Of a DNA stretch of 64,000 nucleotides, positions 171-13,906 are shown piece after piece (within the stretch, counting starts at the first letter, position 1; the number at the start of each line of letters is the position of its first letter). Source of the stretch: Lysobacteraceae bacterium SCN 69-320 (GTDB lineage: Bacteria > Pseudomonadota > Gammaproteobacteria > Xanthomonadales > Rhodanobacteraceae); assembly GCA_001725155.1 (NCBI GenBank), contig MEFP01000030.1:620001-684000 (forward strand), written 5' to 3'. The notes beneath the pieces were generated by a model. It ran no database searches. It had not been told where the DNA came from and worked only from the letters and a program-made list of their open reading frames with translations. The translations under genes and the position numbers were made by a program.

Positions 171-191
171 GGCGCCGGCGTCGCCGGCGCC
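171..191 (-). terminator. Palindromic hairpin just past the hemerythrin gene
   Basis: A perfect 10-bp inverted repeat (GGCGCCGGCG, one central base, then its complement) begins 5 bases after the stop codon of the hemerythrin-like gene. No T-tract follows on the minus strand, so it may be a weak terminator or an mRNA 3'-end stabiliser. Bases 1-170 show nothing else recognisable. Confidence 0.4.
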
Positions 192-195
192 GATC

Positions 196-726: not shown

Positions 727-1025
727 GGTATCTCCGATGCCGCGTCGGCGGCCTGCGATGACGAAACGCCGGAGCGCGGCGGCGCCCGGTTCATGGACTC
801 TGAGCTGGTTTCGGAGCGCCCCCTGTGGCGCGCCGTCGCGAGGAAAAGTGCGACGGATACAACATTTGGTCCGAGGTTAACCAATCGCGTGTACAAAAAA
901 AATAGCGAACAACTCTAATGTGATGATGTGCACATTTTTTCGACGGTGTGGCGGCGCGTCGCAGGGACTTGAGCATTCCATCACGGATGGTATGGTTGCA
1001 CCCGGCCCGACGACGGAGCGAAGGC
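727..1025. promoter_or_regulatory. Divergent intergenic region with AT-rich core and palindrome
   Basis: This 299-bp gap separates the divergent hemerythrin and membrane-protein genes. Around 893-940 it becomes clearly AT-rich against a GC-rich background and contains a perfect 10-bp palindrome, ATGTGCACAT (926-935), followed by a run of T. This is the likely promoter/operator zone. The TetR product of the downstream operon is an obvious candidate ligand for the palindrome, but that is inference. Confidence 0.4.
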
Positions 1026-1381
1026 ATGAACCCCTGGCAGGGCGCCGCGGCAGTCGCCGCCTTCTCGACGTTCCTGATCCATCTCGTCGTCGGCGGCCGT
1101 CGATCGCACGCCCGCTGCTGGCCGCCCGCGATCTTCCACGCGTGCCGCGGCTGACCGTCCACTGCTGCTGGCACATGATCGGCCTGCCGCTGTTCGGCAT
1201 GGCCGCTGCGCCGGCCTGGGCCGTGCACCGGACCAACCCGGTGCTGGGCGGCGCGCTCGCCGTGGCCCTTGCCGCGCCAAGCCGCGGCCTGATCGCCGCT
1301 TGCCGTGTCGAACCCTGGCACATGCCGCAATGGGCCCTGTTCCTGCCGATCGCCGCGCTGTCCGGCCCGGGCCTGCTTTGA
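1026..1381 (+). pseudogene. Small inner-membrane protein gene broken by a -1 frameshift
   Basis: The first reading frame starts MNPWQGAAAVAAFSTFLIHL and continues to GGR at about 1100. The next frame then resumes with IARPLLAARDLPRVPRL and runs through WHMPQWALFLPIAALSG to a TGA at 1379-1381. Both halves read like one hydrophobic protein of about 118 aa, and the join is consistent with one missing base near 1101-1102. I recall similar uncharacterised membrane proteins of this length with the same WHMPQW ending, but cannot verify that here. The stop overlaps the tetR start (TGATG), so the gene was coupled to the exporter operon. The break may be a real mutation or a sequencing error. Confidence 0.6.
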
Positions 1382-1932
1382 TGGCGCGGCACAGCGAGGT
1401 CGACTGGATCGCGGCCGGCCTGGAATTGCTGGCCGGGCCCGGCCATGCGCGGCTGACCGTCGCCGATCTCTGCGCGCGCACCGGGCGCACCAAGGGCTCG
1501 CTGTATCACCACTATCCCGATATGGCCGCGTACCGTGCGGAGCTGCTGGCGGTCTGGCGCGAACGGCATACCGAACAGCTGATCGCGGCGGCCGAACGCG
1601 AGAGCCGTACCGACGACAAGGCGCGCGTGCTCGACGCGCTGGCCCAGGCGCTGGATCTGCGCCTGGAGCGCGCCGTGCGCAACTGGGCGGCGCACGAGCA
1701 GCAGGCGCGCGAGGCCGTGCAGGCCGTGGACCGCCTGCGAATCGACTACCTGGCCGGCCTCTGTCGCGACGACGGACTGAGCGCAACCGATGCACGCGAC
1801 CACGCCATCCTGACCTATGCGCTCTACCTGGGCCTGCAACAGTTGTCCGGCGCCGACGAGCAGGCCGCACTGCGGCGGCTTTCGTCCAAGGTCGAGTTCG
1901 TGCTGCCGCCGGCCGCGGCGCGGGGCCCGTGA
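1381..1932 (+). CDS. TetR/AcrR-family transcriptional regulator
   Basis: 183 aa from the ATG at 1381, which overlaps the preceding stop. The N-terminal helix-turn-helix is clear (LTVADLCARTGRTKGSLYHH, about residues 24-43). The remaining three-quarters is the helical ligand-binding domain of the family. It sits second in an operon whose later genes encode an ABC exporter, and its stop overlaps the GTG of the permease gene. It is probably a local repressor of this operon that releases DNA on binding a small molecule. The ligand is unknown. Confidence 0.85.
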   Translation: MARHSEVDWIAAGLELLAGPGHARLTVADLCARTGRTKGSLYHHYPDMAAYRAELLAVWRERHTEQLIAAAERESRTDDKARVLDALAQALDLRLERAVRNWAAHEQQAREAVQAVDRLRIDYLAGLCRDDGLSATDARDHAILTYALYLGLQQLSGADEQAALRRLSSKVEFVLPPAAARGP

Positions 1933-3083
1933 ACGGCCTCGACGCCAGCCGCATCAGCGGCACCAGCCTGCTCGCCTGGCGCAATCTGAGCCACGACCGC
2001 GCGCGCTTCGTCGTGACCCTCGTCGGCGTGCTGTTCGCCGTGCTGCTGATGGGCGTGGAGCTCGGCCTGCTGCTCGGCTTCGCGCGTACGACCTCCGGCC
2101 TCGTCGACCATACCGACGCCGACCTCTGGATCACACCGGCCGGCACGACCAATGTCGACATCGCCGGCCGTCTCGACGAGCGCCGCCGCTTCGAGGCGCT
2201 GGCCGTGCCCGGCGTCGCGCAAGTCGACCCGCTGATGATGCAGTTCGCGTTCTGGCGCAAGCCCGACGGCGGCACCGAGAGCGTCAGCATCGTCGGTTTC
2301 AATCTCGCAACCGGTCAGGGCCGGCCGTGGAATCTCGTGCAGGGCACGATCGAGGATCTGCAGCAGGACGACGCCGTCATCGTCGACCGGCTGTATGCGG
2401 CCAAGCTCGGCGTCACCGCGCTGGGCCAGACCATCGAAATCAACAACCGCCGCGCGCGCGTGGTCGGCTTCACCGCCGGCATCCGCACGTTCACGCAAAG
2501 CCCCTACGTATTCACGACGCACCGCAACGCCCAGCGCTTCACGTTCTTCCGGCCCGACCAGACCACCTACCTGCTGGTGCGCCTGCGTCCCGGCAGCGAC
2601 GCGGCGGCCGTGCGCGACGCGCTGCAGACGCGCCTGGGCCGCGTCGACGTCTGGTTCGCCGCGGATTTCGCCCGCGCGGCCCAGCGTTACTGGCTGATTA
2701 CCACGGGTGCCGGCTCGGCACTGCTGCTGGCCGCCCTGCTCGGCCTCGTCGTCGGCATCGTCATCGTCGGCCAGACCCTGTATGCAACCACCGTGGACCG
2801 CCTGCCCGAATACGCGACCCTGCGCGCGATGGGCGCGCCGAACCGCTATCTGTATCGCGTGATCCTCAAGCAGGCCGCGATCAGCGCCGTGTTCGGCTTC
2901 ATCGGCGGCATGCTGCTGGTCGGACTCGTCGTGCTCGCGAGCGCCGGCAGCACGGTCGCCGTCGCGATGCCGCCCGGGCTGATCGGCGTACTCGGGCTGC
3001 TGACCCTGTGCATGTGCGCGCTGGGCGCGCTCGTGTCGATACGTCGCATCATGCGCATAGACCCGACATCGGTGTTCCAGTGA
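1929..3083 (+). CDS. ABC exporter permease, DevC/MacB-FtsX type
   Basis: 384 aa from a GTG that overlaps the tetR stop (GTGA). One membrane segment lies near residues 27-50, then a large extracytoplasmic domain (about 55-250), then three further segments near 256-285, 315-337 and 351-372. This is the four-helix FtsX/MacB/DevC topology, and the segment TVDRLPEYATLRAMGAP just after the second helix is the family's conserved cytoplasmic turn. With the ATPase and HlyD-like lipoprotein that follow, it should form a periplasm-spanning exporter. In cyanobacteria DevBCA exports glycolipids; the substrate here is unknown. Confidence 0.85.
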   Translation: MNGLDASRISGTSLLAWRNLSHDRARFVVTLVGVLFAVLLMGVELGLLLGFARTTSGLVDHTDADLWITPAGTTNVDIAGRLDERRRFEALAVPGVAQVDPLMMQFAFWRKPDGGTESVSIVGFNLATGQGRPWNLVQGTIEDLQQDDAVIVDRLYAAKLGVTALGQTIEINNRRARVVGFTAGIRTFTQSPYVFTTHRNAQRFTFFRPDQTTYLLVRLRPGSDAAAVRDALQTRLGRVDVWFAADFARAAQRYWLITTGAGSALLLAALLGLVVGIVIVGQTLYATTVDRLPEYATLRAMGAPNRYLYRVILKQAAISAVFGFIGGMLLVGLVVLASAGSTVAVAMPPGLIGVLGLLTLCMCALGALVSIRRIMRIDPTSVFQ

Positions 3084-3784
3084 GCGCCGTGATCACGCTG
3101 GATCGGGTCGGCGTCACCTACGGCCGCGGCGCAACCGCGCTGGCCGCGCTGCAGGACGTCAGCCTGGCCATCCATCCCGGCGAGATGACCTTGCTGCTCG
3201 GACCCAGTGGCTCGGGCAAGACCAGTCTGTTGCAAGTCATGGGCTGCCTGCTGCGACCCAGTCGCGGCCGCGTGCAGCTGTTCGGCGAAGCGCTGGCGCC
3301 GGACCTCGGCGTCGAAGCCCTGGCCGCGCTGCGCCTGGCGCACATCGGCTTCGTGTTCCAGCACTACAACCTGTTCCCGACCCTGAAGGCCTGGGAGAAC
3401 GTCGCGATCGCGCTGGACCTCAAGGCCCTGCCGCGCGCGCAGCAGCGCGAGCAGTCGCTGCACTTGCTCGAACGCCTGGGCCTGGCCGACCGCGCCGGGC
3501 ACTATCCGGCCGAGCTGTCCGGCGGCCAGAAGCAGCGCGTCGCTATCGCGCGCGCGCTGGCCGGCGGCCCGCGCATCCTGCTCGCCGACGAACCGACCGC
3601 GGCGCTGGACGGCAAGACCGGCCAGGGCGTCGCGGCGACCCTGCACGAACTCGCCCACGATGCCGGCGTCGCCGTCGTCGTGGTCAGCCATGATCCGCGC
3701 GTGGAGCCGTTCGGCGACCGCGTGCTGCATCTCGAAGACGGCCGCCTCGTCGACGACCGGCGTCCGCCCCGGAGCACCGCATGA
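3080..3784 (+). CDS. ABC exporter ATPase, DevA/LolD/MacB type
   Basis: 234 aa from GTG at 3080, overlapping the permease stop; a second in-frame GTG lies at 3089. All ATPase motifs are intact: Walker A GPSGSGKT, Q-loop FVFQHYNLFPTL, signature LSGGQKQR, Walker B ILLADEPTAALD, and the switch histidine in VVVVSHD. The sequence is closest in style to the LolD/DevA/MacB branch that partners FtsX-like permeases. It should energise export through the permease encoded immediately upstream. Its stop overlaps the start of the fusion-protein gene (ATGA). Confidence 0.9.
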   Translation: MSAVITLDRVGVTYGRGATALAALQDVSLAIHPGEMTLLLGPSGSGKTSLLQVMGCLLRPSRGRVQLFGEALAPDLGVEALAALRLAHIGFVFQHYNLFPTLKAWENVAIALDLKALPRAQQREQSLHLLERLGLADRAGHYPAELSGGQKQRVAIARALAGGPRILLADEPTAALDGKTGQGVAATLHELAHDAGVAVVVVSHDPRVEPFGDRVLHLEDGRLVDDRRPPRSTA

Positions 3785-4794
3785 AATCTGCAGTCTGGAT
3801 ACTCGTCGCGCTCGCCGCACTGCCGGCACTGACCGGCTGCGGCCGCAGCGCCAGCCCGCCGCCGGCCGCGCGGCCCGGCCTGATCGCGGCCGGCGGCCTG
3901 GTCGAACCCGACGGCGAGGAGCGCGTGATCATTCCGCAGCTGTCGGGCCGGCTGGCCAAGGTGCTGATCGTCGAGGGCGAAGCCGTGCAGGCCGGCCAGC
4001 TCATCGCCGAGATCGAAAACAGCGAATACCGTGCGGCGCTGGCCGCGGCCACCGCCGAACTCGTGCGGCGCGAGGCCGAACTGACGCGCCTGCGCAACGG
4101 CGCGCGCGCCGAGGAAATCGCCGCGGCTGCGGCGGCGCGCGACGAAGCGCTCGCGCTGGAGCGGCAGGCCGAGGCCGAGCGTGACCGCCGCGACAATCTG
4201 CTGCGCAACAAGCTGATCGCCGCGGAGACGGCGCAGCAGGCCCGTGCCCAGGCCGAAGCGGCCAGCGCACGCCGCGCGCGCGCCGATGCCGATCTCGCGC
4301 TGCTGCGTGCCGGCACGCGCGCCGAGGACATCGCCGCGGCGAGCGCCGCGGTCGACGCCGCGCGCGCCGAACGCGATCGCGCTCAGGCGCTGCTCGACAA
4401 ATCGCTGATCCATTCGCCGATCAGCGGCAACGTGCTCAAGCGCGACCTCGGCGAAGGCGAGACCGTGGTCGCGCTGTCGCCGCTGCCGCTGGCGCGCATA
4501 GGCAACCTGGCGAAGCGCTTCGTGCGTGCCGACATCGACGAACTGGACATCGGCCGCATCCGCGAAGGCCAGTCGGCCATCGTCACCAGCGATGCGTTTC
4601 CGCAGCAGCAATTCAGCGGCAAGGTCGTGCATGTGAGTCAGCGCATGGGCCGGCGCAATGCCTTGTCGGGCGACCCGGCCGAGAAGCAGGACGCCAAGAT
4701 CCTCGAGGCGCTGATCGAACTCGACGGCCAGCCGCCGCTGCCGATAGGCCTGCGCGTGGATGTGCGCATCGCGGCGACGCCGCAGGCGCAGTGA
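3781..4794 (+). CDS. HlyD/DevB-like periplasmic adaptor lipoprotein
   Basis: 337 aa. The N-terminus is a lipoprotein signal ending in the lipobox LTGC (Cys20), so the protein should be anchored in a membrane facing the periplasm. A biotinyl-lipoyl-like half (LIAEIENSEYRAALAAATAE), a long Ala/Glu/Arg-rich helical hairpin (about residues 90-200) and a C-terminal beta domain follow in the order usual for membrane-fusion proteins. It is the third component of the DevCAB-type exporter and overlaps the ATPase stop. An outer-membrane channel such as TolC is not encoded here and would have to come from elsewhere. Confidence 0.85.
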   Translation: MKSAVWILVALAALPALTGCGRSASPPPAARPGLIAAGGLVEPDGEERVIIPQLSGRLAKVLIVEGEAVQAGQLIAEIENSEYRAALAAATAELVRREAELTRLRNGARAEEIAAAAAARDEALALERQAEAERDRRDNLLRNKLIAAETAQQARAQAEAASARRARADADLALLRAGTRAEDIAAASAAVDAARAERDRAQALLDKSLIHSPISGNVLKRDLGEGETVVALSPLPLARIGNLAKRFVRADIDELDIGRIREGQSAIVTSDAFPQQQFSGKVVHVSQRMGRRNALSGDPAEKQDAKILEALIELDGQPPLPIGLRVDVRIAATPQAQ

Positions 4795-4836
4795 ATCCCT
4801 GGCGCGATATCCGCATCGAACCGTGCCGAGGTAGGC

Positions 4837-4870
4837 CGACGTTGCGGTTCGCCTTCGGCTCAGCACAACC
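4837..4870 (-). repeat. Dispersed intergenic repeat, copy A
   Basis: Read on the minus strand this is GGTTGTGCTGAGCC followed by GAAGGCGAACCGCAACGTCG. The same core occurs at 41786-41826, 41956-41989, 50213-50250 and 50318-50355. It lies between the convergent adaptor and dehydrogenase genes. Copies differ at a few positions and occur only between genes. Confidence 0.6.
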
Positions 4871-4930
4871 GGCCTCCGGAAACTGCGTCGCCCCTCTTGC
4901 GCGGCAGGCGTCGGTCGCAATCGACCGCGT

Positions 4931-6127
4931 TCAGCGGTCGATGCGGCTGCCGTCCTCGTGCCAGATGCGGCCGTTGGGATCGAATTCGTCGGCGGCGCGC
5001 CGCTGCGCGCGCGGGCCGAAACCGCAGACCGCGAGCACGCCTTCGACCAGTGGATCCAGGCCCAGCGCCTGCTCGATCTCGACTTCGTTGACCGCCGCGG
5101 TGACGAAGGCGCCGAGGCCGAGATCGGTCGCCGCGAGATACAAGGTCTGCGACAGATGGCCGACATCCAGCGCGGCCACGCGATAGGCCTTGGCGTGATT
5201 GCGGTATTTCCAGAAGCTGCGCGGAAAGCGCACGGCCAGCGCGATGAGCACCGGCGCCGCGGCGAAATACGCCTGCGCGGCGACGCCGCGCAGGGCCAGG
5301 TCGGACGCATCGTCCGCGGTCAGTGCCCTGATCGGTTCCAGCACATGCTCGACGGGCCGGTAGTGATAGAGCCCGGGCGCGAGGCCGGCGACGCGCTGCA
5401 CGATCAGATACGCACCGGTCGGATGCAGGCCGCCGCCCGAAGGACTGTTGCGCTTGAGCACCGTGGTCGCGCCGCCGCCTTCCAGAGTCAGCGTGCCCTG
5501 GGCGCCGAATACGCGGTGCAGCATCGTCGCGAGCTCGTCCTGCGCGAGCGCTGCGTCGGTATCGAAATTGCGGCAGGTCGCGCGCCGCTGCAACAGTTCG
5601 TCGAACGCGCTGCGCCGCGGCGGCGGCAGCGGCAGGCGCGCATCCTCGGCGGCGCAAGTCTGCGCGGCCGGCGGCGGCTCGCCGAGCTTGTCGATGAGCT
5701 CGCCAAGCGTGACGTAGCCGGCGCGCTGCAGCTCGTCGCCCGAACGCACGCCGTCCCAGCGGCCGAGGTAATGCTGCGCGGCCGACAAGGTGCGCCAGTT
5801 CGCCGCGCGCAGACGCTCGTCGCGCAGGTGGTCGACGGAGGCCGCGTCATCGGCAATCAGCAGGCCGCGCGCGAGCAGATCCTGCAGCGGCGCGGCGCCA
5901 TACACCGCGGCCAGCGCATCGAACTCGCTCCAGGCCGTGCACGGCACGGCGGCGAGTATCGCGACGTCCTGCGGCGATACGGCGATTTCCTGTTGCCGAT
6001 GCGGTGCCAGCGCGAGCAGCGACAGCTGCGTGCGCAGCCCGTCGCCGCCGGCGGCCAGTGAATCCAGGTCGAACTGCAGCGCCTCGCGCGGTTCGAACAG
6101 CAAATGGGCGCAGCGGCGCAGGCGCAT
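4931..6127 (-). CDS. SagB/nitroreductase-like dehydrogenase, putative peptide maturation enzyme
   Basis: 398 aa. The C-terminal two-thirds is an FMN-dependent nitroreductase fold of the SagB/McbC oxidase type: the RRATCRNF entry motif, the SPSGGGLHPTGAYLIV segment and the late helix around YRVAALDVGHLSQTLYLAATD are all recognisable. The N-terminal 170 residues are a separate, helix-rich region. I recognise it as resembling the TIGRFAM family 'putative peptide maturation dehydrogenase' (TIGR04511), named from its genomic partnership with NHLP-related precursors. SagB-type enzymes oxidise azolines to azoles in RiPPs; the reaction here is not known. It is divergent from the precursor gene at 6405, with a 277-bp shared promoter region. 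No cyclodehydratase partner is visible. Confidence 0.75.
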   Translation of the reverse strand: MRLRRCAHLLFEPREALQFDLDSLAAGGDGLRTQLSLLALAPHRQQEIAVSPQDVAILAAVPCTAWSEFDALAAVYGAAPLQDLLARGLLIADDAASVDHLRDERLRAANWRTLSAAQHYLGRWDGVRSGDELQRAGYVTLGELIDKLGEPPPAAQTCAAEDARLPLPPPRRSAFDELLQRRATCRNFDTDAALAQDELATMLHRVFGAQGTLTLEGGGATTVLKRNSPSGGGLHPTGAYLIVQRVAGLAPGLYHYRPVEHVLEPIRALTADDASDLALRGVAAQAYFAAAPVLIALAVRFPRSFWKYRNHAKAYRVAALDVGHLSQTLYLAATDLGLGAFVTAAVNEVEIEQALGLDPLVEGVLAVCGFGPRAQRRAADEFDPNGRIWHEDGSRIDR

Positions 6128-6337
6128 GGAAACTCCTGTGAGAACGGTTGCGGCGGCGATGCATCGGTCGCCGACCGGGAAGACGCCGACCGTGGCTGCG
6201 GTCTGCGGTGTCGACGGTAGTCAGGCGGCTGCGCCGCGGCAAGCCCGTGCCGTGCAGCCGCTCCGGATGCGCCTGCACGCAGCCCGGGATGTGTAGTTTT
6301 TCCGCGGAATAACCCGCTTTGCGGCCATTCCGGGGAT

Positions 6338-6366
6338 TTGTTGGCGCAGCTCTTGCTGGCTACACT
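6338..6366 (+). promoter_or_regulatory. Candidate promoter of the RiPP precursor gene
   Basis: A -35-like TTGTTG (6338-6343) and a -10-like TACACT (6361-6366) are separated by exactly 17 bases. This would start transcription near 6373 and give a leader of about 32 nt before the ATG. Both boxes match the sigma-70 consensus only partly. Confidence 0.35.
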
Positions 6367-6371
6367 CGACT

Positions 6372-6388
6372 AGCCACAGATCGTGGCT
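6372..6388 (+). promoter_or_regulatory. Short hairpin directly before the precursor ribosome-binding site
   Basis: AGCCAC and GTGGCT form a perfect 6-bp inverted repeat with a 5-base loop. It ends three bases before the strong Shine-Dalgarno AGGGGGA (6391-6397). In the predicted leader it would lie almost at the 5' end, so it could be an operator or an mRNA structure affecting translation or stability. Confidence 0.35.
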
Positions 6389-6404
6389 TCAGGGGGAAAT
6401 CGCA

Positions 6405-6659
6405 ATGGCAAATCTCACGCCCACGCAGGTGGACACACTGCTCGACAAGCTCGGTTCCGACGACCAGTTCCGCGCCTTGCTGCTCAGCGATCCGGCGTCC
6501 GCGCTCCGCCAGATCGGCGCACCGGAAGAACTGGCAGCCTGCTTCGCCAAGTGCAAGCAGCTCGCGGATCCGCAGACCCTGAAGGCGTCGCGCAGTGCAA
6601 TTCAGAAGCAGCTAGGCGGCACTATGAGCGCAAACATTCACGACTTGCGCACCAGCTGA
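6405..6659 (+). CDS. NHLP/Nif11-related RiPP precursor peptide
   Basis: 84 aa with a strong ribosome-binding site (AGGGGGA, 7-base spacing). The leader contains the Nif11/NHLP-style helix FRALLLSDPASALRQIGAPE (residues 22-41), typical of peptides recognised by RiPP enzymes. Cys46 and Cys50 (CFAKC) are in the leader half. A double glycine (G71-G72) precedes a 12-residue tail, TMSANIHDLRTS, with Thr73, Ser75, Thr83 and Ser84 as potential modification sites and no Cys. The protein resembles the TIGRFAM family 'NHLP-related RiPP peptide' (TIGR04509). The gene faces the dehydrogenase gene back to back and its last 22 bases overlap the 3' end of the convergent cyclase gene. The real product and its bioactivity are unknown. 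Confidence 0.75.
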   Translation: MANLTPTQVDTLLDKLGSDDQFRALLLSDPASALRQIGAPEELAACFAKCKQLADPQTLKASRSAIQKQLGGTMSANIHDLRTS

Positions 6660-9319
6660 GGGGCATCGCCCTTGAGCAAGGCTTCCACGCGCCGCTGCAG
6701 CGGCGCGGGGAGTTCCGCTTCCGGCCACAGACGCAGGAACTCCGTGAGCCGCTGCGCCGCCATGTCGGCCTTGCCCTGACGCTGCGCGAGTTCAGCTTCG
6801 TCGAGAACCGCCAGATTCGACTCGGCAACGTTCAGCGACTTCAGCATCTCGTCGCCGTTGTATTCCGCATAAGCTCGGCCGCGATGCTGCATGAGCCATT
6901 GCGTCTCGGCGGCGGCCGCATCGAGGGCACCGACTGCGGTCTGCGCGTCGCGCAGCCCCGCGTGAACCAGATACATCTCGGAGCCGTCGATACGTGCGCT
7001 CAGCAGCGGCAGTGCAGCCGCCTTGTCGTCGCCGAGCAGTACGAGCTGGGCCTGCGCCAGCGCTGCCATATCGGCGACATAGCGATAGCTGGCGACGTCG
7101 TCGTCGGCGGCGACCTTGGCAAGCAGTTCGCGCGCCAGCGCTGCATCGCCGTTGCGCGCCGCGACGTAGGCCGCAAAGAACACGCTGAATAGCGCCTGCT
7201 CGCGATCGTTGTTGCGCGGGTCGTGCAGGGCTTCGAGTTCGCTGCTCGCATAGGTGCCGATCTGCCGTCCGAGTTCGGAGCCCGGCATGGCGACCGCTTG
7301 CAATGACAACTTCATGCCGCGGTAGGTGCGCGCGATGACCGGACTGACCAGCCTGGCTGCCGCCTCCGCTTCATCGGCGCGCTTGAGGGCTTCGCGCCAG
7401 CGCCCCTGGTCGACGGCCAGGGCAATGCGCACACGATGCACCTGAATGTCGTTGCTCGGAATGCCGCTGGTGCGCAGATTGGCCAGCTCCTTTTCCGCAT
7501 CGACGAAACGCCGGGGTATCGCCGCCGCGTCGATGAAGCGAATGCCCCCAAGCCCGGCCGCGTTCATTTCCTTGGCCCGCTGCAGATGGGTCTGCGCCTG
7601 CTGCGGCTTGTCGCTGGCGAGATACAGCGCGCCCAGCAGGTAATGGGTGTTGCCGCTGCGCGGATAGTGCGGCGCTATGGCCTTGTTGGCCGCGGCAATC
7701 GCGTCGGCGAAACGCCCGTCGTAGACATAGATGAAGTGTGCGAGGTTGGCGAAGGCCGCGTAGTGGTCCGGATACATCTCGCCGAGCAGCGTCCATTTCT
7801 TCTGCATCTCGGCCGGCTTGCCGAAGCTCGCGGCAAGCGCATCCATATAGAGCTGCTCGCGTACCGGCAGACGATCGCGCAGCGCCACGGCACGGTCGAC
7901 GTCGGCCTTGGCCGCCGTCCGGTCTTCGGCACCGAGGCGCAGCGCCGCGCGTCCGAGATAGGCCAGGGCGAAATCCGGATCCAGCCGTATCGCCTGGGCG
8001 TAGAGCTCCAGCGCAGTATCGCCACCGCCGCCCTCGGTCGCCGCCTTGCGCGCAAGCGAATAGGCGCGCAGCGCGTCGAGGTTGTCGGTCGTGACCTTGG
8101 CCAGCGGCGGGCTGGCGGTGCCGACCAGGGCCAGCGACTCGCCGAGGCGGCCACGCAGCTGGCGGTTGATGCTGTCCACCGAGACCAGCAGCGAATCCAG
8201 GCCCTGCCCTTCGGCCGAATCGGTATAGACCGTGGCCTGGCTGCGCGGGTCGATGATCTCGGCCGTCACGCGCAGCTTGCCGCCGATTTCGGCGACACTG
8301 GGCAGCACGAACGCGCGCGCGCCTTCGCGCACGGCGATCTCGGCGCCGATGGCGCGGTCGATGCGCGTCTGTGTCGGATCACGGCGCATGCGCCGCACCG
8401 CCTCGCGCACCTGCAGGTCGGGCACGATGTTGACGTAGCGCGACTGCTCCACGCTCAGGCGCAGCGCAGTGCGCAGGGTATCGTCGAGCGAGGCCTGGCC
8501 GGTCAGGTTCTGCAGGTCGCCGAGCACGATCCAGTCGCGTTCGGCGAACGCGATCGCCGCGGGCGGCCGCAGCAGCAGCCAGACGCCCAGCAGCAATGCC
8601 GCGGCGGCGATACCGGCCTCGATGAACATGGTGCCGGGGCGGCGCCACCAGGGCACTTCGCGCCAGGCCTTGCCCGAATACGGCGGCAGGCGCAACGGCG
8701 CGATGCCGGCTTCGCCGACTTCGTAGACGACCAGCGGTTCGGGCACTCCCTTGAAACGGTAGCGGCCGTGATTGATCCAGCGCGTGCGATCGGCGTTGGA
8801 ACCGAGCTCGCCGTGGGCGCGCTGGGCCAGGCTTGCGGCGACGCCGGAAACGAGGATCTGGCCCGGCAGCGCCAGCGAGGCCAGACGCGCGGTCACCGGC
8901 TTGACCAGGCCTTCGACTTCCAGCGGCTTGGCGCCGTGGACCACGTCGCCGGGATCGTTCTGCCAGACCAGCACGTCGCCGACATGCACGCCGACGCGGG
9001 CGCGCAGCGGCTCTTTCTCCTCTTCGCTCAGACGCAGCAGCTCGCGCTGGTAGGCCAGTGCGAACGCGATCGCATGGATGGGCCGTTCGAACAGGATCAG
9101 GAAGCCGTCGGTCTTGTCGATCTCCTGGCCCTGGTGGCGCAGCATGAGATCGCGCGCCATGCGGTCGTGGCGGCGCAGCAGCGCCGCGGCGCGCTGGTCG
9201 CCCAGCCGCTCGACCAGGCTCGTGGAATCGACGAGGTCGCAGAGCGCGAGCGTGCGCAGCAGGGGCGCACCCTGGCGCGTGGACGGTTGCGGTTCCGCGG
9301 ACGATACCAAGGCATTCAT
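6638..9319 (-). CDS. Class III cyclase-like/TPR membrane protein of the peptide-modification cassette
   Basis: 893 aa. Residues 20-200 form a class III adenylate/guanylate cyclase-like domain with metal-site aspartates D28 (LCDLVDST) and D71 (DKTDGFLILF). The usual catalytic Asn before the Arg is not seen: the segment reads LVKPVTARL (138-146). A transmembrane helix (about 232-250) leads to a probably periplasmic region with a substrate-binding-like part and many TPR-like helices (about 430-880). This layout matches the TIGRFAM family 'putative peptide modification system cyclase' (TIGR04510). Despite the name it is a nucleotide-cyclase homologue, not a peptide macrocyclase. It is probably a signalling or scaffold protein of the RiPP locus, with enzymatic activity uncertain. 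Confidence 0.75.
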   Translation of the reverse strand: MNALVSSAEPQPSTRQGAPLLRTLALCDLVDSTSLVERLGDQRAAALLRRHDRMARDLMLRHQGQEIDKTDGFLILFERPIHAIAFALAYQRELLRLSEEEKEPLRARVGVHVGDVLVWQNDPGDVVHGAKPLEVEGLVKPVTARLASLALPGQILVSGVAASLAQRAHGELGSNADRTRWINHGRYRFKGVPEPLVVYEVGEAGIAPLRLPPYSGKAWREVPWWRRPGTMFIEAGIAAAALLLGVWLLLRPPAAIAFAERDWIVLGDLQNLTGQASLDDTLRTALRLSVEQSRYVNIVPDLQVREAVRRMRRDPTQTRIDRAIGAEIAVREGARAFVLPSVAEIGGKLRVTAEIIDPRSQATVYTDSAEGQGLDSLLVSVDSINRQLRGRLGESLALVGTASPPLAKVTTDNLDALRAYSLARKAATEGGGGDTALELYAQAIRLDPDFALAYLGRAALRLGAEDRTAAKADVDRAVALRDRLPVREQLYMDALAASFGKPAEMQKKWTLLGEMYPDHYAAFANLAHFIYVYDGRFADAIAAANKAIAPHYPRSGNTHYLLGALYLASDKPQQAQTHLQRAKEMNAAGLGGIRFIDAAAIPRRFVDAEKELANLRTSGIPSNDIQVHRVRIALAVDQGRWREALKRADEAEAAARLVSPVIARTYRGMKLSLQAVAMPGSELGRQIGTYASSELEALHDPRNNDREQALFSVFFAAYVAARNGDAALARELLAKVAADDDVASYRYVADMAALAQAQLVLLGDDKAAALPLLSARIDGSEMYLVHAGLRDAQTAVGALDAAAAETQWLMQHRGRAYAEYNGDEMLKSLNVAESNLAVLDEAELAQRQGKADMAAQRLTEFLRLWPEAELPAPLQRRVEALLKGDAPQLVRKS

Positions 9320-9516
9320 GCCCGAGACTCCAGGACGGACGGCGGCAGGCCTTTCCCCCTGCGTTCCAGCCAGAACCCCCTGGGCCTGGCCGAGACGCCG
9401 ATCACAATGTCGAGGCCTAGCGCAAAAGTGTACGCTGCCAGCTCATCAATGCGCATCTGCGCGCGTGCCGCCACATCATTTGCTGCACCGCAGCATGACG
9501 AGCACGCCCTCGCCGC

Positions 9517-10593
9517 CTAGGCGATGACGCGGAAGTTGTCGCCGCCCTCGCCCTTGACGAGATACAGGGCGCAGTCCGAATCGCTGTACCAGGCCGACCA
9601 CTCGGACGTCTCGTGACACAGGCTCGCGCCGATGCTGACGCTGACGAGCAGATTCTCGGCCGGCGCATGGAAGCGCAGTCCGCGCACGCCGGCGGCGATC
9701 TGCGCGGCCCGGCCGCGCAGTTCCTCGGCGTCGTGCACCTGGACCAGCACGGCGAATTCGTCGCCGCCGAGGCGGCACGGCAGATCGGTCGCCGCGGCGG
9801 CCTGCTGCACCTCGCGCGCGACCGCGCGCAGGGCCAGGTCGCCGGTCAGGTGACCGTAGTGGTCGTTGATCTGCTTGAAATGGTCAATGTCGATCAGCAG
9901 CAGGCCCAGGCGCATGCCCGGGTCGCGCCGGGCGCGCAGTTCGTCCAGGTAGTGATAGAGCCCGCGCCGGTTGCACAGGCCGGTCAGCTCGTCGGTACGC
10001 ACGAGGCGCTCGGCCGTGGACAGCTGGGTCTGCGTCTGGCGCAGCGAATCCAGGGTCACGAGCAGGTCTTCGTTGCGCCGCTTGAGGTTCTGGATCAGCT
10101 GCTGCTCGCTGGCCACGAGATAGGAGAACGAGCGGCGCATGAACTGGGCGAGCAGCGGTGCCTGGGTCTGCAGCAGGGTCTCGAATTCCGCATGCTCGAT
10201 GACGCGCAGCACGCTGGCCTCGGCCGCAACGGCATTGGCGACGCGGGCATGGTTGCCGATGAACAACGCGAGCTCGCCGAAGAATTCGCGCGGCCCGATC
10301 AGCTTGTCCGGCATACCGTCGCCGAATTCGAGCTGGATGCTGCCGGCCTCGATCACGAACATCGCACGGCCGAGCTCGCCCTTGCGGAAGATCATCTCGC
10401 GCGGCACGAGTTCGCGGCGCTGGCCGACGCTGACGAACAGCGCGAGTTCCTCGTCGGAGAGCTGGCGCGGCAGAAACACGGGGCGCGCCCGCGCAAAGGC
10501 GCTGCCCGGCGCGGCGGATTGCGCCAACGAGGCTCCAGGACTGACCTTGACCACGTAATCCCCCCCGGGAACGCTTGTCTGTCGGTCCGGCAT
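9517..10593 (-). CDS. Diguanylate cyclase with N-terminal cyclic-nucleotide-binding domain
   Basis: 358 aa from the ATG at 10593 (MPDRQTSVPGGDYVV). Residues about 45-165 are a cNMP-binding (Crp-like) beta-barrel (GELGRAMFVIEAGSIQLEFG, FFGELALFIGN). A helical linker leads to a GGDEF domain with an intact active site, GGDEF at 276-280, preceded by LLIDIDHFKQINDHYGH. No RxxD product-inhibition site is visible upstream of the motif. It should make c-di-GMP under control of a bound cyclic nucleotide. It lies 197 bp upstream of the cyclase-TPR gene on the same strand, which makes a cAMP-type signal from that neighbour an attractive but unproven input. Confidence 0.85.
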   Translation of the reverse strand: MPDRQTSVPGGDYVVKVSPGASLAQSAAPGSAFARARPVFLPRQLSDEELALFVSVGQRRELVPREMIFRKGELGRAMFVIEAGSIQLEFGDGMPDKLIGPREFFGELALFIGNHARVANAVAAEASVLRVIEHAEFETLLQTQAPLLAQFMRRSFSYLVASEQQLIQNLKRRNEDLLVTLDSLRQTQTQLSTAERLVRTDELTGLCNRRGLYHYLDELRARRDPGMRLGLLLIDIDHFKQINDHYGHLTGDLALRAVAREVQQAAAATDLPCRLGGDEFAVLVQVHDAEELRGRAAQIAAGVRGLRFHAPAENLLVSVSIGASLCHETSEWSAWYSDSDCALYLVKGEGGDNFRVIA

Positions 10594-10759
10594 GTTACCG
10601 CAGGCGTATGGTCGCCGCGGCAGGAAGTCGGCAGACAGTGCAGATTTTTCCGGTGTTCGGAACTTTTGCGCGGCGAACCGGTGGAAGAGCCCCCCTGCGC
10701 CGACGGCCGGGACCGCGGCCGTGCGGCGGACGCCGCCGGCACCGCCCCCGCTCGGCCGC

Positions 10760-11536
10760 TCAGGCGCGCAGACCGACCCCGCGGCGCAGCAGGTACAGGC
10801 CGAAACCCGCGAGTACCGCCGCCGTGACCAGCATGACGGCATAGGCCGCATAGAGGTTCACGTCGCTGACGCCGAGCAGGCCGTAGCGGAACGCGTTGAC
10901 CATGTAGACGATGGGATTGGCCAGCGAGATCGCGTGCCAGGGCTCGGCCAGATGGCTGACCGGATAGAACACGCCGCCAAGATAGGTCAGCGGGGTCAGG
11001 ATGAAGGTCGGCACGATCGCGATGTCGTCGAACTTCTTCGCATAGACCGCGTTGACGAAGCCGGCCAGCGCGAACACGACGGCAGTCAGCAGGAACGTCG
11101 TCAGGGTCACGAACACGTGGTGCAGGCGGATGTGCGTGAAGAACATGGCCACGCCGAGGACGATGGCGCCGACCATGAGGCCGCGCACGACGGCGCCGGT
11201 CACGTAGCCGGTCAGGATGACCCAGCTCGGCATCGGCGAAACCAGCATTTCCTCGACGTAGCGGCCGAACTTGGAGCCGAAGAAGGAACTGGAGATGTTG
11301 CCGTAGGCGTTCTGGATCACCGCCATCATGATCAGGCCCGGCACGATGAAGTCGATGTACTGCACGCCCGGCTGCATCTCGCCGATGCGGCCGCCGATCA
11401 GGTTGCCGAAGATGAAGAAATAGAGAGTCATCGTGATCGCCGGCGGCAACAGGGTCTGGCCCCAGATGCGCAGGATGCGCGCGATCTCGCGGCGGACGAT
11501 GGTGCCGAGGGCGACTAGGTTGGCTTGGGTCTGCAT
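10760..11536 (-). CDS. yadH: ABC-2 type transporter permease, YadH-like
   Basis: 258 aa with six hydrophobic segments, beginning with the short cytoplasmic MQTQANLVALGTIVRREIAR and ending with the basic RRGVGLRA tail. The order and length fit the ABC-2 permease family, and LVSPMPSWVILTGYVTGAVVR is the typical central loop region. It is encoded 64 bp downstream of its ATPase on the same strand. E. coli YadGH is the closest named model; its substrate is undefined, so no export substrate is proposed. Confidence 0.85.
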   Translation of the reverse strand: MQTQANLVALGTIVRREIARILRIWGQTLLPPAITMTLYFFIFGNLIGGRIGEMQPGVQYIDFIVPGLIMMAVIQNAYGNISSSFFGSKFGRYVEEMLVSPMPSWVILTGYVTGAVVRGLMVGAIVLGVAMFFTHIRLHHVFVTLTTFLLTAVVFALAGFVNAVYAKKFDDIAIVPTFILTPLTYLGGVFYPVSHLAEPWHAISLANPIVYMVNAFRYGLLGVSDVNLYAAYAVMLVTAAVLAGFGLYLLRRGVGLRA

Positions 11537-11600
11537 GGGAATCGTCAGGATTCGGAGTGGATGACCCGCCGGCGCGGCTCGCCGCGCGGCAGGCGCGCGG

Positions 11601-12536
11601 TCAGGCGGCCTTGCCGTGGTTGCCCTCGACGAGGCGCACGAACAGCTCTTCGAGGCGATTGGCCTTGTTGCGCATCGAGGTCACCGTGACGCCGCGCGCA
11701 CTCAATGCGGCGAACAGCGAATTGAGGTCGTGGGTGCGCGACATCTCGGCCTCCAGCGTGTGCGCGTCGACCGGGGTCAGGCGCACGCCGTCGACCTGCG
11801 GCAGCGACTCGGGCATCGCGGCGACGTCGAGCACGAACGTCTCCACGTCGAGCTTGGACAGCAGGCGCTTCATCGACGTGTTCTCGATGATGCTGCCCTT
11901 GTCGATGATCGCTATGTTGCGGCAGAGCTGCTCGGCTTCCTCGAGGTAATGCGTGGTCAGGATCACCGTCGTGCCGGCGCGGTTGATCTCGGTGACGAAC
12001 TTCCACATCGAGCGGCGGATCTCGATGTCGACGCCGGCGGTGGGCTCGTCGAGGATCAGCAGGCGCGGCTCGTTCATCATCGCGCGGGCGATCATCAGGC
12101 GCCGCTTCATGCCGCCGGACAAGGTGCGCGAGGCGACGTCCTTCTTTTCCCAGAGACTGAGCTGGCGCAGGTAGGTCTCGGCTCGGCCGCAGGCGACGCC
12201 GCGCGGAATGCCGTAGAAGCCGGCCTGGTTCACGCAGATGTCGAACGGCGTCTCGAACTGGTTGAAGTTCAGCTCCTGCGGCACGAGGCCGATCAGTTGC
12301 ATCGCGCCGCCGCGGTCACGGTGGATCGAGCGGCCGAACACTTCGGCCTCGCCGGCGCTGGCGTTCACCAGCGAGGACAGGATGCCGATCAGGGTGGACT
12401 TGCCTGCGCCGTTGGGCCCGAGCAGGGCGAAGAAGTCGCCGGGTTCCACGCGCAGCGAGACGCCCTTGAGCGCCTGTACGCCATTCGCGTAAGTCTTGGT
12501 CAGGTTGCGGACGTCCAGGGCCGGAGGCGCGCTCAT
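11601..12536 (-). CDS. yadG: ABC transporter ATPase, YadG-like
   Basis: 311 aa. The nucleotide-binding domain occupies the first 220 residues, with Walker A GPNGAGKST, signature LSGGMKRR, Walker B LLILDEPTAGVD and the switch His in TTHYLEEAEQL. The last 80 residues form the C-terminal regulatory extension common to this ABC-2 partner group. It forms an operon with the permease gene downstream. It is divergent from the ferredoxin reductase gene across only 65 bp. Confidence 0.9.
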   Translation of the reverse strand: MSAPPALDVRNLTKTYANGVQALKGVSLRVEPGDFFALLGPNGAGKSTLIGILSSLVNASAGEAEVFGRSIHRDRGGAMQLIGLVPQELNFNQFETPFDICVNQAGFYGIPRGVACGRAETYLRQLSLWEKKDVASRTLSGGMKRRLMIARAMMNEPRLLILDEPTAGVDIEIRRSMWKFVTEINRAGTTVILTTHYLEEAEQLCRNIAIIDKGSIIENTSMKRLLSKLDVETFVLDVAAMPESLPQVDGVRLTPVDAHTLEAEMSRTHDLNSLFAALSARGVTVTSMRNKANRLEELFVRLVEGNHGKAA

Positions 12537-12601
12537 GGGCTGCAGGGTCGGGGAGGGGCAGGTAGTATACGGTCCCCTTTGCCGCCGATTGGTTCCGTCC
12601 C

Positions 12602-13351
12602 GTGGCCGAACAGTTTCCGCTGCGCCTGGTCTCCAGCTACATGCTCGCGCCGGCCGTGCGCCATCTGGTGTTCGAGCGCGCCGACGACCAGCCCTTCGTG
12701 TTCGCGCCGGGCCAGTTCATCCAGGTGCATTTCCACTACGCCGACGGCAAGCCGACCAAGCGCAGCTACTCGGTGGCGACGGTGGGCGACGGCACGGCCA
12801 CGCCGGCCGAACGCATCGAGATCGCCGTGTCGTATGTCGAAGGCGGCGCCGCGACGGCCCTGCTGGCCGGCCTGCAGCCCGGCGACACGATCAGCGCGAG
12901 CGGCCCCTACGGCCGCTTCTGCCTGTTCGATACCGACACGAACCGCCGCTACCTGCTCGTCGGCACCGGAACCGGCATCACGCCGTACCGCGCGATGCTG
13001 CCGCAGCTGCGCCGCGTGATCGCCGGACGCGGCTGCACGGTCGACCTGGTCTTCGGCGCGCGCAACGAAGGCGAACTGCTGTACGACGCGGACTTCAGCA
13101 CATTCGAGCGCGAGGTGCCGGGCTTCCGCTACCACGCCTGCCTGTCCCGCGCGCCGCGCGCGCAGCCGCGCGCGCACGATTACCACGGCCGCGTGCAGGT
13201 TGCGCTGGAGGCGCTGCAGCCGGCGGCCGACAGCGACATCGCCTACCTCTGCGGCAATCCGAACATGGTCGACGAGGCCTTCACCCTGCTCAAGAACGTC
13301 GGTCTGGCCGTACCGCACATCCGGCGCGAGAAATACGTCTCGTCCAAGTAA
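12602..13351 (+). CDS. fpr: Ferredoxin--NADP(+) reductase
   Basis: 249 aa from a GTG at 12602. FAD-binding residues are in KRSYSVAT and the NADP-binding core is VGTGTGITPYRAML. The C-terminus YLCGNPNMVDEAF followed by EKYVSSK is typical of bacterial-type (Fpr) reductases of 240-260 aa. The enzyme moves electrons between NADPH and ferredoxin or flavodoxin in the cytoplasm. It ends 9 bp before the convergent cytochrome b561 gene. Confidence 0.88.
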   Translation: MAEQFPLRLVSSYMLAPAVRHLVFERADDQPFVFAPGQFIQVHFHYADGKPTKRSYSVATVGDGTATPAERIEIAVSYVEGGAATALLAGLQPGDTISASGPYGRFCLFDTDTNRRYLLVGTGTGITPYRAMLPQLRRVIAGRGCTVDLVFGARNEGELLYDADFSTFEREVPGFRYHACLSRAPRAQPRAHDYHGRVQVALEALQPAADSDIAYLCGNPNMVDEAFTLLKNVGLAVPHIRREKYVSSK

Positions 13352-13360
13352 GCACGGCGC

Positions 13361-13906
13361 TCAGCGGAGCATGCGGCGCAGGGTGTTGTCGCGGAAATAC
13401 AGGTGGTGCGCCAGCGCCGCCGCCGCGTGCAGGCCGATCACGACGTAGAAGGCCTTGCCCAGCGCGACGTGCAGATCCTCGGTCCACTCATGCAGGCCGC
13501 GATCCAGGCCGACGAAATTCGGCAGCGTGAAGCCGAGCAGCGGAATGGTCACGGCGCGGTCGCCGCTTTGCGCGGTCAGCAGGCCGAGCAGCGGCTGCAC
13601 GATCAGGAACAGATACAGCAGCAGATGCGCCGTGCGTGCGGCCAGATGCACGAAACGGCCGGGCGCCGGGACGATGGCCGGCGCCGGCTGGACGAGGCGC
13701 GCGCCGATGCGCGGCAGCACCAGCAGCCAGATCAGCAGGCCCAGCGCCATGTGCCACTGCATCACCGCCATGCGCGCCGGCCGGTCCGGCGCGAGACCGC
13801 GCAGCTCGGCGGTCGCATAGGCAGCGATCATCAGCAGCAAGGTGCCCCAGTGCAGCACGCGTACGAGGCGGGAATAGTGCGTGGCCGGTGATGCGATGAC
13901 GTTCAT
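13361..13906 (-). CDS. Cytochrome b561-type membrane protein
   Basis: 181 aa with four hydrophobic helices. Candidate haem-ligand histidines lie in RVLHWGTLLL (helix 1), MQWHMALGLLIW (helix 2), and LHVALGKAFYVVIGLHAAAA with LAHHLYF (helix 4). This is the bacterial CybB/YceJ-like diheme cytochrome b561, usually an inner-membrane quinol or superoxide oxidase. Its ATG overlaps the stop of tag (ATGA), so it is the last gene of a three-gene coupled operon. The functional link to DNA repair is unclear. Confidence 0.85.
   Translation of the reverse strand: MNVIASPATHYSRLVRVLHWGTLLLMIAAYATAELRGLAPDRPARMAVMQWHMALGLLIWLLVLPRIGARLVQPAPAIVPAPGRFVHLAARTAHLLLYLFLIVQPLLGLLTAQSGDRAVTIPLLGFTLPNFVGLDRGLHEWTEDLHVALGKAFYVVIGLHAAAALAHHLYFRDNTLRRMLR

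What the first reader, a model, noticed from the sequence alone, without database searches (positions are those of the whole stretch)
4931..9319. Compact RiPP-type locus: precursor, SagB-like oxidase and a cyclase-TPR membrane protein, without a cyclodehydratase
Three adjacent genes read as the TIGR04509/04510/04511 trio (precursor, 'cyclase', dehydrogenase), a widely noted but chemically uncharacterised peptide-modification system in Lysobacterales. Normal SagB enzymes need a cyclodehydratase (SagC/D-like YcaO), and none is encoded nearby. The core has no Cys and only Ser/Thr, so azole formation is doubtful. A different modification may take place. The family names come from my recall; the gene arrangement is seen.
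Basis: partly seen in the sequence, partly recalled or inferred. Interest (0 to 1): 0.92.

Follow-up and report, generated by a model that had tools for sequence, protein, structure and literature searches.

The report
Swappable peptide-sensor cassette driving cGMP signalling
A small gene set thought to make a modified peptide turns out to be part of a four-gene unit in which peptide, peptide-modifying enzyme and membrane sensor are exchanged together between related bacteria while the cGMP/cyclic-di-GMP output stays the same, as expected of a peptide signal and its matching receptor.

Summary
The trio is real: dehydrogenase, precursor and 'cyclase' match TIGR04511, TIGR04509 and TIGR04510 far above cut-off, and the genome has no YcaO match. 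But the locus is a quartet: a cNMP-binding GGDEF protein lies directly upstream of the cyclase in 110 of 119 sampled loci. The pair corresponds to XC_0250/XC_0249 of Xanthomonas campestris, a published guanylate cyclase and cGMP-activated diguanylate cyclase whose TPR domain is uncharacterised (PMC3770947). The 'cyclase' therefore most likely signals rather than modifies the peptide.

Main result: in pairs chosen for conserved cyclase domain and GGDEF protein (both at least 85% identical), periplasmic TPR domain, precursor and dehydrogenase are usually kept together or replaced together, with the break inside the cyclase gene after the catalytic domain. Within a type the peptide tail is under strong purifying selection. 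Cognate peptide/receptor (pherotype) cassettes behave so. One group of five loci keeps the sensor with unlike precursors.

Best explanation: a RiPP-like peptide, oxidised by the SagB-like enzyme without azole chemistry, is the ligand of the TPR sensor and tunes cGMP, then c-di-GMP. Binding, export and the chemical change are inferred.

The parts
9517..10851 (-). cNMP-binding + GGDEF protein (ORF 444 aa; true start probably further in, as matches to homologues mostly begin near residue 85-135): predicted cGMP receptor and diguanylate cyclase, counterpart of XC_0249
   Evidence: PF00027 and PF00990; cNMP domain matches PDB 5h5o at 89 bits; equivalents of XC_0249 F73, E90, H98 and E146 are F176, E193, H201 and E249, invariant in 110 of 110; N145 is S248 here; GGDEF motif invariant
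6638..9319 (-). TIGR04510 protein: class III cyclase domain, TM segment, periplasmic alpha/beta domain and TPR superhelix; predicted peptide-regulated guanylate cyclase, counterpart of XC_0250
   Evidence: 884 bits; XC_0250 positions D41, D71, A150, A161 identical, F for L73 and V for L157; fold model, pLDDT 72.9
8660..9268 (-). Cytosolic class III nucleotide cyclase domain (residues 18-220): constant part
   Evidence: 81-100% identical among Xanthomonas loci that carry different sensor types; two searches were selected for at least 85%; PDB cyclase Ma1120 match
8567..8638 (-). Transmembrane segment (about residues 228-251)
   Evidence: one TM-like segment in 97 of 105 homologues, positive-inside on the N side in 102 of 104 (the window protein is one of 7 with a second, weak segment, near residues 146-164 inside the cyclase domain); helix 228-250 in the model
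6665..8089 (-). Periplasmic TPR superhelix (residues 411-885): swapped sensor
   Evidence: helical repeats in the model; from residue 424 on, identity is 15-40% per block in 57 switched pairs against 63-87% in 29 unswitched pairs
6405..6659 (+). TIGR04509 NHLP-type precursor peptide, 84 aa
   Evidence: 69 bits, cut-off 34; conserved antisense position
6621..6656 (+). Proposed product tail TMSANIHDLRTS after LGG (cleavage not shown)
   Evidence: position inferred; 5 of 6 precursors of the genus keep (V/I/P)HxL near the end (by eye); equivalent tails in three Xanthomonas types have dN/dS 0.01-0.10
4931..6127 (-). TIGR04511 SagB-like flavin dehydrogenase, 398 aa
5828..6127 (-). N-terminal domain of the dehydrogenase (residues 1-100), RRE-like by position and secondary structure
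   Evidence: secondary structure and pLDDT; ThcOx alignment spans model residues 1-375; RRE assignment inferred
6128..6404 (.). Divergent intergenic region between precursor and dehydrogenase starts
   Evidence: sequence; no sigma-70-like promoter or terminator found by a simple scan

Best explanation
This is a peptide-signal/receptor unit built on a cGMP relay. (1) The precursor is bound by the RRE-like N-terminal domain of the SagB-like flavoenzyme, which oxidises one residue of the C-terminal tail directly, most likely a Calpha-Cbeta desaturation; no azoline is made because no cyclodehydratase is present (inferred). (2) The tail is cut off and reaches the periplasm by an unknown route (inferred). 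(3) It binds the periplasmic TPR superhelix of its own cyclase and changes the output of the cytosolic cyclase domain (inferred from cassette exchange and topology). (4) That domain makes cGMP (by homology to XC_0250, where this was shown). (5) cGMP binds the adjacent cNMP-GGDEF protein and raises c-di-GMP synthesis (by homology to XC_0249, where this was shown). Peptide, enzyme and sensor are exchanged between strains as one specificity cassette against a constant output module (shown by sequence comparison).
For: Quartet: cNMP-GGDEF directly upstream on the same strand in 110 of 119 loci, 34 genera, 5 families, median spacing 8 bp. Output identity: XC_0250 residues D41, D71, A150, A161 present in the window, and D41 in 123, D71 in 126, A150 in 126 and A161 in 120 of 126 homologues; XC_0249 ligand residues F73, E90, H98, E146 invariant in 110 of 110, numbering fixed by one offset of those tried in PDB 5h5o. 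Cassette exchange: L104 and L141 share 97.3% DNA identity over 7.5 kb up to inside the cyclase gene, no listed DNA match for 3.5 kb, then 98.7% over 6.3 kb, with GGDEF 99, cyclase domain 100, periplasmic 29, precursor 24, dehydrogenase 33% protein identity. Of 86 close pairs, 29 keep the sensor (60% or more) and all 29 keep precursor (50% or more) and dehydrogenase (60% or more); 57 switch the sensor, and in 53 the precursor and in 49 the dehydrogenase falls below its threshold. Within 12 genera (353 pairs) sensor and precursor identity correlate at r 0.72 after removing GGDEF and cyclase-domain identity, reached by 0 of 5000 permutations, while GGDEF against precursor is r 0.01. Five records titled X. 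arboricola carry three types. Tail dN/dS 0.03, 0.10 and 0.01 in three Xanthomonas types against 0.10, 0.13 and 0.13 for the leader. The window's genus shows it too: L090 against the window GGDEF 87, cyclase domain 87, periplasmic 46, precursor 45, dehydrogenase 61. N-side positive in 102 of 104, so the TPR part is predicted outside.
Against: No binding, cGMP or peptide measurement exists for the trio. Counter-example: among all pairs of the 105 loci, 50 have sensor identity of 60% or more and 6 of these have precursor under 50% and dehydrogenase under 60%; all 6 lie among five loci of four genera (L088, L089, L123, L127, L133), where the sensor is kept at 64-76% (TPR 56-72%) and precursor and dehydrogenase differ. 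No C39 peptidase match in the genome, and the ABC/HlyD genes beside the locus recur only in the same genus, so export is unexplained. Physical linkage alone can make contiguous genes co-vary; pairs within a genus are not independent. The tail does not covary with the TPR better than the leader does (tail 0.21, leader 0.37 after controls that differ slightly). In the window's own genus the dehydrogenase is less switched than the sensor. The guanine contact N145 is Ser here and in 21 of 21 f1 homologues, so cGMP preference is less sure than in Xanthomonas. 9 of 119 loci lack the adjacent GGDEF gene in the fetched stretch.
Confidence: 0.6

Rival explanations
1. A polymorphic antimicrobial RiPP with self-sensing: the tail is a narrow bacteriocin, the TPR protein reports (or protects against) the own type, and cGMP/c-di-GMP is a competition response.
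For: NHLP-type leader; discrete swapped types are also known from bacteriocin/immunity cassettes (recalled).
Against: The ABC/HlyD exporter genes recur only in the same genus and no immunity gene was recognised among the ten recurrent neighbour families scanned (gene calling there was rough, six of ten had no Pfam match); the sensor is fused to a second-messenger enzyme; the tail is nearly invariant within a type.
Confidence: 0.16
2. A private, cell-internal checkpoint: peptide and oxidase make a small redox product or cofactor sensed by the same cell, with no cell-to-cell role.
For: No C39 peptidase match and no conserved ABC/HlyD exporter; the dehydrogenase and precursor show no exported form (inferred).
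Against: The TPR domain is predicted outside the membrane; a cofactor would not need four or more allelic types within one genus.
Confidence: 0.15
3. Hitch-hiking only: the sensor domain diversifies for another reason and neighbouring genes are replaced because they are next to it; no functional link between peptide and cyclase.
For: The genes are contiguous, so one recombination tract replaces them all; five loci keep the sensor with unlike precursors.
Against: The identity break recurs inside the cyclase gene; in 86 close pairs precursor or dehydrogenase is not switched without the sensor at the thresholds used; the three families co-occur across 5 families of the order.
Confidence: 0.09
4. 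A thiazole/oxazole (TOMM) pathway whose cyclodehydratase lies elsewhere in the genome.
For: SagB-family dehydrogenase with the KY motif.
Against: No YcaO match in the genome; 110 of 119 dehydrogenase genomes have none (cross-read by eye); the window tail has no Cys.
Confidence: 0.02

Closest known systems
cGMP pathway of Xanthomonas campestris, XC_0250 and XC_0249 (An et al. 2013, PMC3770947)
   Same: Linked pair with the same two domain architectures; catalytic and ligand residues largely conserved; the g56 loci of this study are Xanthomonas.
   Different: The paper (abstract and parts 1-3 of 4 of the main text read) does not mention a precursor or dehydrogenase there and calls the TPR domain uncharacterised. 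The window protein has F73 and V157 in the cyclase and S for N145 in the receptor. X. campestris itself was not among the fetched loci.
NCBIfam TIGR04509/04510/04511 system (modified peptide, cyclase, dehydrogenase)
   Same: All three over the curated cut-offs.
   Different: The family names place the cyclase in a peptide modification system; here it is argued to be the receptor, and a fourth gene is added.
SagB/McbC/ThcOx azoline oxidases
   Same: Fold, FWKY motif shared with CyaGox/ThcOx, extra N-terminal domain as in ThcOx.
   Different: No YcaO match in the genome; no Cys in the tail.
AlbAB-type cyclodipeptide oxidases (C-C oxidation)
   Different: Act on cyclodipeptides, no leader-binding domain; resemblance of fold only, and plain nitroreductases score as high.
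Allelic peptide-pheromone systems (Agr, Com, Rap-Phr/RRNPP; recalled)
   Different: Gram-negative, periplasmic TPR fused to a guanylate cyclase, SagB-like modification, c-di-GMP output.

Membership tests
TIGR04509/04510/04511 trio | Each protein over its curated cut-off | tested here: met
TIGR04509/04510/04511 trio | Genes adjacent, precursor between the two enzymes | tested here: met
   cyclase, antisense precursor, same-strand dehydrogenase is the plain order in 83 of 122 loci
TOMM (thiazole/oxazole) pathway with SagB | YcaO cyclodehydratase partner | tested here: not met
   whole genome, no match; control positive in 5 of 14
TOMM (thiazole/oxazole) pathway with SagB | SagB-family flavin dehydrogenase | tested here: met
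   TIGR03605 128 bits (cut-off 78.4), PF00881 88 bits
NHLM/NHLP export system | C39 peptidase-ABC exporter | tested here: not met
   no PF03412 match in the genome; control positive in 8 of 14
XC_0250-type guanylate cyclase | Residues D41, D71, A150, A161 (reported necessary in XC_0250) | tested here: met
XC_0250-type guanylate cyclase | L73 and L157 | tested here: inconclusive
   F73 and V157 in the window; F in 37 and V in 7 of 126 homologues
XC_0250-type guanylate cyclase | cGMP synthesis in vitro | not testable with these tools
   needs enzyme assay
XC_0249-type cGMP receptor | F73, E90, H98, E146 ligand contacts and GGDEF motif | tested here: met
XC_0249-type cGMP receptor | N145 guanine contact | tested here: not met
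   S248 in the window; S in 21 of 21 f1, N in 74 of 85 f2
Allelic peptide-receptor (pherotype) system | Peptide and sensor domain switch together against a constant output | tested here: met
   one exception group of five loci
Allelic peptide-receptor (pherotype) system | Secreted peptide that activates its own type | not testable with these tools
   needs peptide and reporter assay

The most novel reading that the evidence does not exclude
A new class of bacterial peptide pheromone: an oxidised, azole-free RiPP recognised by the periplasmic TPR domain of a receptor guanylate cyclase, relayed from cGMP to c-di-GMP, with allelic specificity cassettes throughout the order that holds Xanthomonas. 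It would be a bacterial counterpart of peptide-activated receptor guanylate cyclases and would supply the missing input of the XC_0250 pathway.
Probability: 0.43. Interest if true: 0.95.

Novelty: new variant of a known kind. Interest (0 to 1): 0.85.

Why it matters
Two separate lines of work meet here: a named but uncharacterised RiPP-like trio, and a published cGMP to c-di-GMP relay that controls biofilm formation and virulence in Xanthomonas and whose TPR domain is still called uncharacterised. The cassette exchange makes a direct prediction (each sensor answers to its own peptide) that a few in vitro tests could settle. It would also show SagB-like chemistry on a peptide without a cyclodehydratase.

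Tried and rejected
Azole formation through a distant YcaO: rejected for this genome. Dedicated export by a C39 peptidase-transporter: no match in the genome. The ABC permease/ATPase/HlyD genes at about 1929-4794 as the exporter: HlyD and permease homologues lie beside the locus in 4 of 146 loci searched, all of genus g1, so not part of the conserved unit. CRP-like sites (6 in the window, fewer than the chance mean) and sigma-70 promoters or terminators in 6000-6800: nothing found. Rfam in 1-16000: nothing at gathering score. Attributing sensor covariation to the tail alone: not supported, all precursor parts covary. TPR fold search: unrelated TPR proteins score as high as or higher than pheromone receptors, so it is no evidence of function. 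The dehydrogenase fold does not decide the chemistry, since plain nitroreductases score as high as azoline oxidases. The cyclase domain itself was poorly predicted. A wider distribution: 3 of 185 genomes in a class sample and 4 of 200 in a phylum sample pass the dehydrogenase cut-off, all of the same order; 4 more of the 200 match below the cut-off. Fetching X. campestris itself: the named scan returned 24 loci, none titled X. campestris. Gene calls by longest ORF gave many antisense families in this high-GC DNA; of ten recurrent neighbour families scanned, four had Pfam matches (LysR regulator, isocitrate lyase, malate synthase, prolyl oligopeptidase family), so recurrent neighbours were not exhaustively tested. 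In one search the terms XC_0251, XC_0252, XAC0424, PXO_02715 and XOO4215 were guesses from memory; 15 of 25 papers were listed, most for PXO_02715, and none of the 15 counts XC_0251 or XC_0252.

One search used 105 of 122 sampled loci (17 dropped for lacking one full component in range) and left out the 24 named loci; where a locus has several precursors (12 of 105) the one nearest the cyclase end was used. One search dropped 4 partial cyclases. One search used hand-picked members of three types (6, 12 and 3 loci). A1 and A2 hold 16 and 17 sequences, mostly Xanthomonas. Paper listings were capped: 25 of 104, 20 of 71, 15 of 25.


Full report
What is there. The three genes described are present and unambiguous. 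The dehydrogenase (4931-6127, minus) scores 494 bits against TIGR04511, the 84-residue precursor (6405-6659, plus) 69 bits against TIGR04509, and the 893-residue protein (6638-9319, minus) 884 bits against TIGR04510, all far over the curated cut-offs. The precursor runs antisense between the two enzymes. The genome, rated 100% complete, has no YcaO match and no C39 peptidase match; both searches had positive controls (5 and 8 of 14).

It is common in the order and nearly confined to it. In 398 genomes of the order, the dehydrogenase, cyclase and precursor models pass their cut-offs in 119, 120 and 120. In class and phylum samples the dehydrogenase passes in 3 of 185 and 4 of 200, all of the same order. 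YcaO passes its cut-off in 48 of the 398; reading the two lists together by eye, 9 of the 119 dehydrogenase genomes also have one, on another contig or at least 0.8 Mb away.

The unit has a fourth gene. I fetched 120 stretches around the hits and, with L026 and the window, compared 122 loci. Cyclase, antisense precursor, same-strand dehydrogenase is the plain order in 83 of 122; the other 39 include extra precursors, doubled cassettes, a flipped dehydrogenase (8 loci) and contig ends. The gene at 9517-10851, with a cyclic-nucleotide-binding domain and a GGDEF domain, has a homologue directly upstream of the cyclase on the same strand in 110 of 119 loci that hold the cyclase start, in 34 genera and 5 families, with a median gap of 8 bp and 198 bp in the window. 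The 9 without it are L080, L098, L103, L109, L110, L114, L121, L126 and L138; L098 and L110 have under 3 kb of upstream sequence.

This pair is already known from another field. An et al. 2013 (PMC3770947; abstract and parts 1-3 of 4 of the main text read) showed that XC_0250 of Xanthomonas campestris, a class III cyclase with an uncharacterised TPR domain, makes cGMP and not cAMP, and that the linked XC_0249 binds cGMP (Kd 0.29 uM) and then makes more c-di-GMP; loss of either reduces biofilm and virulence. The parts I read do not mention a precursor or dehydrogenase there. A 2019 review (PMC8042644, two passages read) still calls the TPR domain uncharacterised. The identity rests on three results. 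The genus g56 is Xanthomonas (L152 is L099 again, and 23 of the 24 named loci are titled Xanthomonas). The residues reported for XC_0250 (D41, D71, L73, A150, L157, A161) sit at exactly these numbers in the Xanthomonas homologue L099. The residues reported for XC_0249 (F73, E90, H98, N145, E146) fit PDB chain 5h5o under one offset of the twenty tried, and that chain is 125 of 129 identical to the gene in X. hortorum (L170, L175). The tool does not name the organism of 5h5o, the paper gives another accession (4KG1), and X. campestris itself was not among the fetched loci. In the window D41, D71, A150 and A161 are kept, L73 is F, L157 is V; in the receptor F73, E90, H98 and E146 are kept and N145 is Ser, as in 21 of 21 homologues of this family.

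The central result is cassette exchange. Among 34 Xanthomonas loci (26 distinct) the GGDEF protein and the cytosolic cyclase domain are 79-100% identical in the comparisons made, but periplasmic domain, precursor and dehydrogenase fall into discrete types that change together. The extreme pair, L104 and L141, is 99% and 100% identical in GGDEF protein and cyclase domain and 29, 24 and 33% in periplasmic domain, precursor and dehydrogenase. At DNA level they match at 97.3% for 7.5 kb into the cyclase gene, have no listed match (over 150 bp, E 1e-10) for 3.5 kb, and match again at 98.7% for 6.3 kb. Five records titled X. arboricola carry three types with GGDEF identity of 92-98%; as the collection holds one genome per GTDB species, these may be different species under one name. 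A gap of the same kind is seen for pairs in g65, g36, g84, g59 and in the window's own genus g1. Its right edge varies: in g1, g59 and g84 the dehydrogenase DNA still aligns at 70-81%, and in L069/L086 and L070/L068 the match resumes inside the dehydrogenase gene.

Numbers. Of all close pairs among 105 loci (GGDEF and cyclase domain both at least 85% identical, by selection), 86 in all, 29 have periplasmic identity of 60% or more; all 29 also keep dehydrogenase (60% or more) and precursor (50% or more). Of the other 57 (periplasmic 26-59%, precursor 19-63%, dehydrogenase 28-71%), the dehydrogenase is under 60% in 49 and the precursor under 50% in 53. These pairs are not independent (24 are in g65, 23 in g56), so I also permuted labels within 12 genera (353 pairs): the partial rank correlation is 0.72 for periplasmic domain and precursor, 0.44 for periplasmic domain and dehydrogenase, 0.50 for precursor and dehydrogenase, each reached by 0 of 5000 permutations; GGDEF against precursor is 0.01. 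The change point in the cyclase protein lies at a median of residue 275 (interquartile 235-353, range 192-461), that is at or after the end of the catalytic domain, and identity in switched pairs is lowest in the TPR part at residues 612-752 (15-24%). The TM segment is at about 228-251, with the positive side on the N side in 102 of 104, so the TPR domain is predicted outside the cytosol.

A result against it. Among all pairs of the 105 loci, whatever their relatedness, 50 keep the periplasmic domain at 60% or more, and 6 of these have precursor under 50% and dehydrogenase under 60%. All six lie between L088/L089 and L123/L127/L133 (genera g89, g45, g79, g74), with TPR identity of 56-72%. So sensor and precursor can be uncoupled, at least once.

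The tail is selected as a product. In three Xanthomonas types (6, 12 and 3 loci chosen by hand) the C-terminal 19-21 codons have dN/dS of 0.03, 0.10 and 0.01, against 0.10, 0.13 and 0.13 for the leader and 0.15-0.27 for the loop before the LASK motif. It is constant within a type and replaced between types, unlike a freely drifting stretch. The per-part test does not single out the tail: leader, second helix and tail all covary with the TPR domain.

Chemistry. The dehydrogenase keeps the FWKY motif of CyaGox/ThcOx, invariant K307-Y308 in 16 sequences, and its model (pLDDT 70.6, pTM 0.49) matches BmdC, ThcOx, McbC and, lower, the AlbAB cyclodipeptide oxidases; plain nitroreductases score in the same range. 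With no YcaO match and no Cys in the window tail, direct Calpha-Cbeta desaturation is my preferred guess. This is inference; the modified residue is unknown. A Cys before the LASK motif is conserved in the leader of most homologues and could also be a site.

What is shown and what is not. Shown here: the quartet, the residue conservation, the cassette exchange and its boundary, purifying selection on the tail, no match to YcaO or C39. Shown by others for relatives: cGMP synthesis and cGMP-stimulated c-di-GMP synthesis. Inferred: modification by the dehydrogenase, export, binding to the TPR domain, cell-to-cell action. Physical linkage could explain joint replacement without binding, but not easily why the break falls so often inside the cyclase gene between output and sensor, or why in the 86 close pairs precursor and dehydrogenase are not switched without the sensor.

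Novelty. The families are named and the relay is published; I found no paper that links them in the searches made (open-licence PMC library only, some listings capped). I therefore rate it a new variant of a known kind (allelic peptide signalling), with the bolder reading, a pheromone-controlled guanylate cyclase, left open.

Noticed in passing
L083 (G289, same genus): Two complete cassettes in tandem (cyclase, precursor, dehydrogenase twice) behind one GGDEF gene, with unlike precursors.
   Followed up: partly
L077 and L078 (g36): A second cyclase-like gene follows the dehydrogenase that matches only from residue 221 or 236 on, i.e. sensor without cyclase domain.
   Followed up: partly
L151 (G278): Cyclase and GGDEF gene, but no match for precursor or dehydrogenase in the genome-wide searches: a possible receptor-only genome.
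   Followed up: no
L126 (G237): Expanded locus with at least nine precursor and four dehydrogenase matches in 20 kb, no GGDEF gene of this kind found in it.
   Followed up: no
L164 (X. vasicola), L172 (X. phaseoli), L132 (G327): Incomplete or interrupted copies: no dehydrogenase found in the 14.5 kb of L164; in L172 the cyclase match ends at residue 646 and the precursor match is split; in G327 the dehydrogenase matches in two pieces about 14 kb apart.
   Followed up: no
L088, L089, L123, L127, L133: Similar sensors (64-76%) with two unlike precursor/dehydrogenase types, the exception to joint exchange.
   Followed up: partly
L140-L147: A variant with the dehydrogenase flipped and short precursors, several without the conserved leader Cys, in families f1, f2 and f4.
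   Followed up: partly
window 1929-4794: ABC permease, ATPase and HlyD-like adaptor beside the locus; HlyD and permease recur only in genus g1.
   Followed up: yes
L036:2482-4815 and relatives; L099:10191-12332: A prolyl-oligopeptidase-family gene near some loci (cluster of 17 loci in 7 genera); a role in peptide processing was not tested.
   Followed up: no
many g36, g65, g84 precursors: A recurrent tail motif (H/V)(C/F)FEAG or close to it, so in many types the tail does contain a Cys.
   Followed up: no
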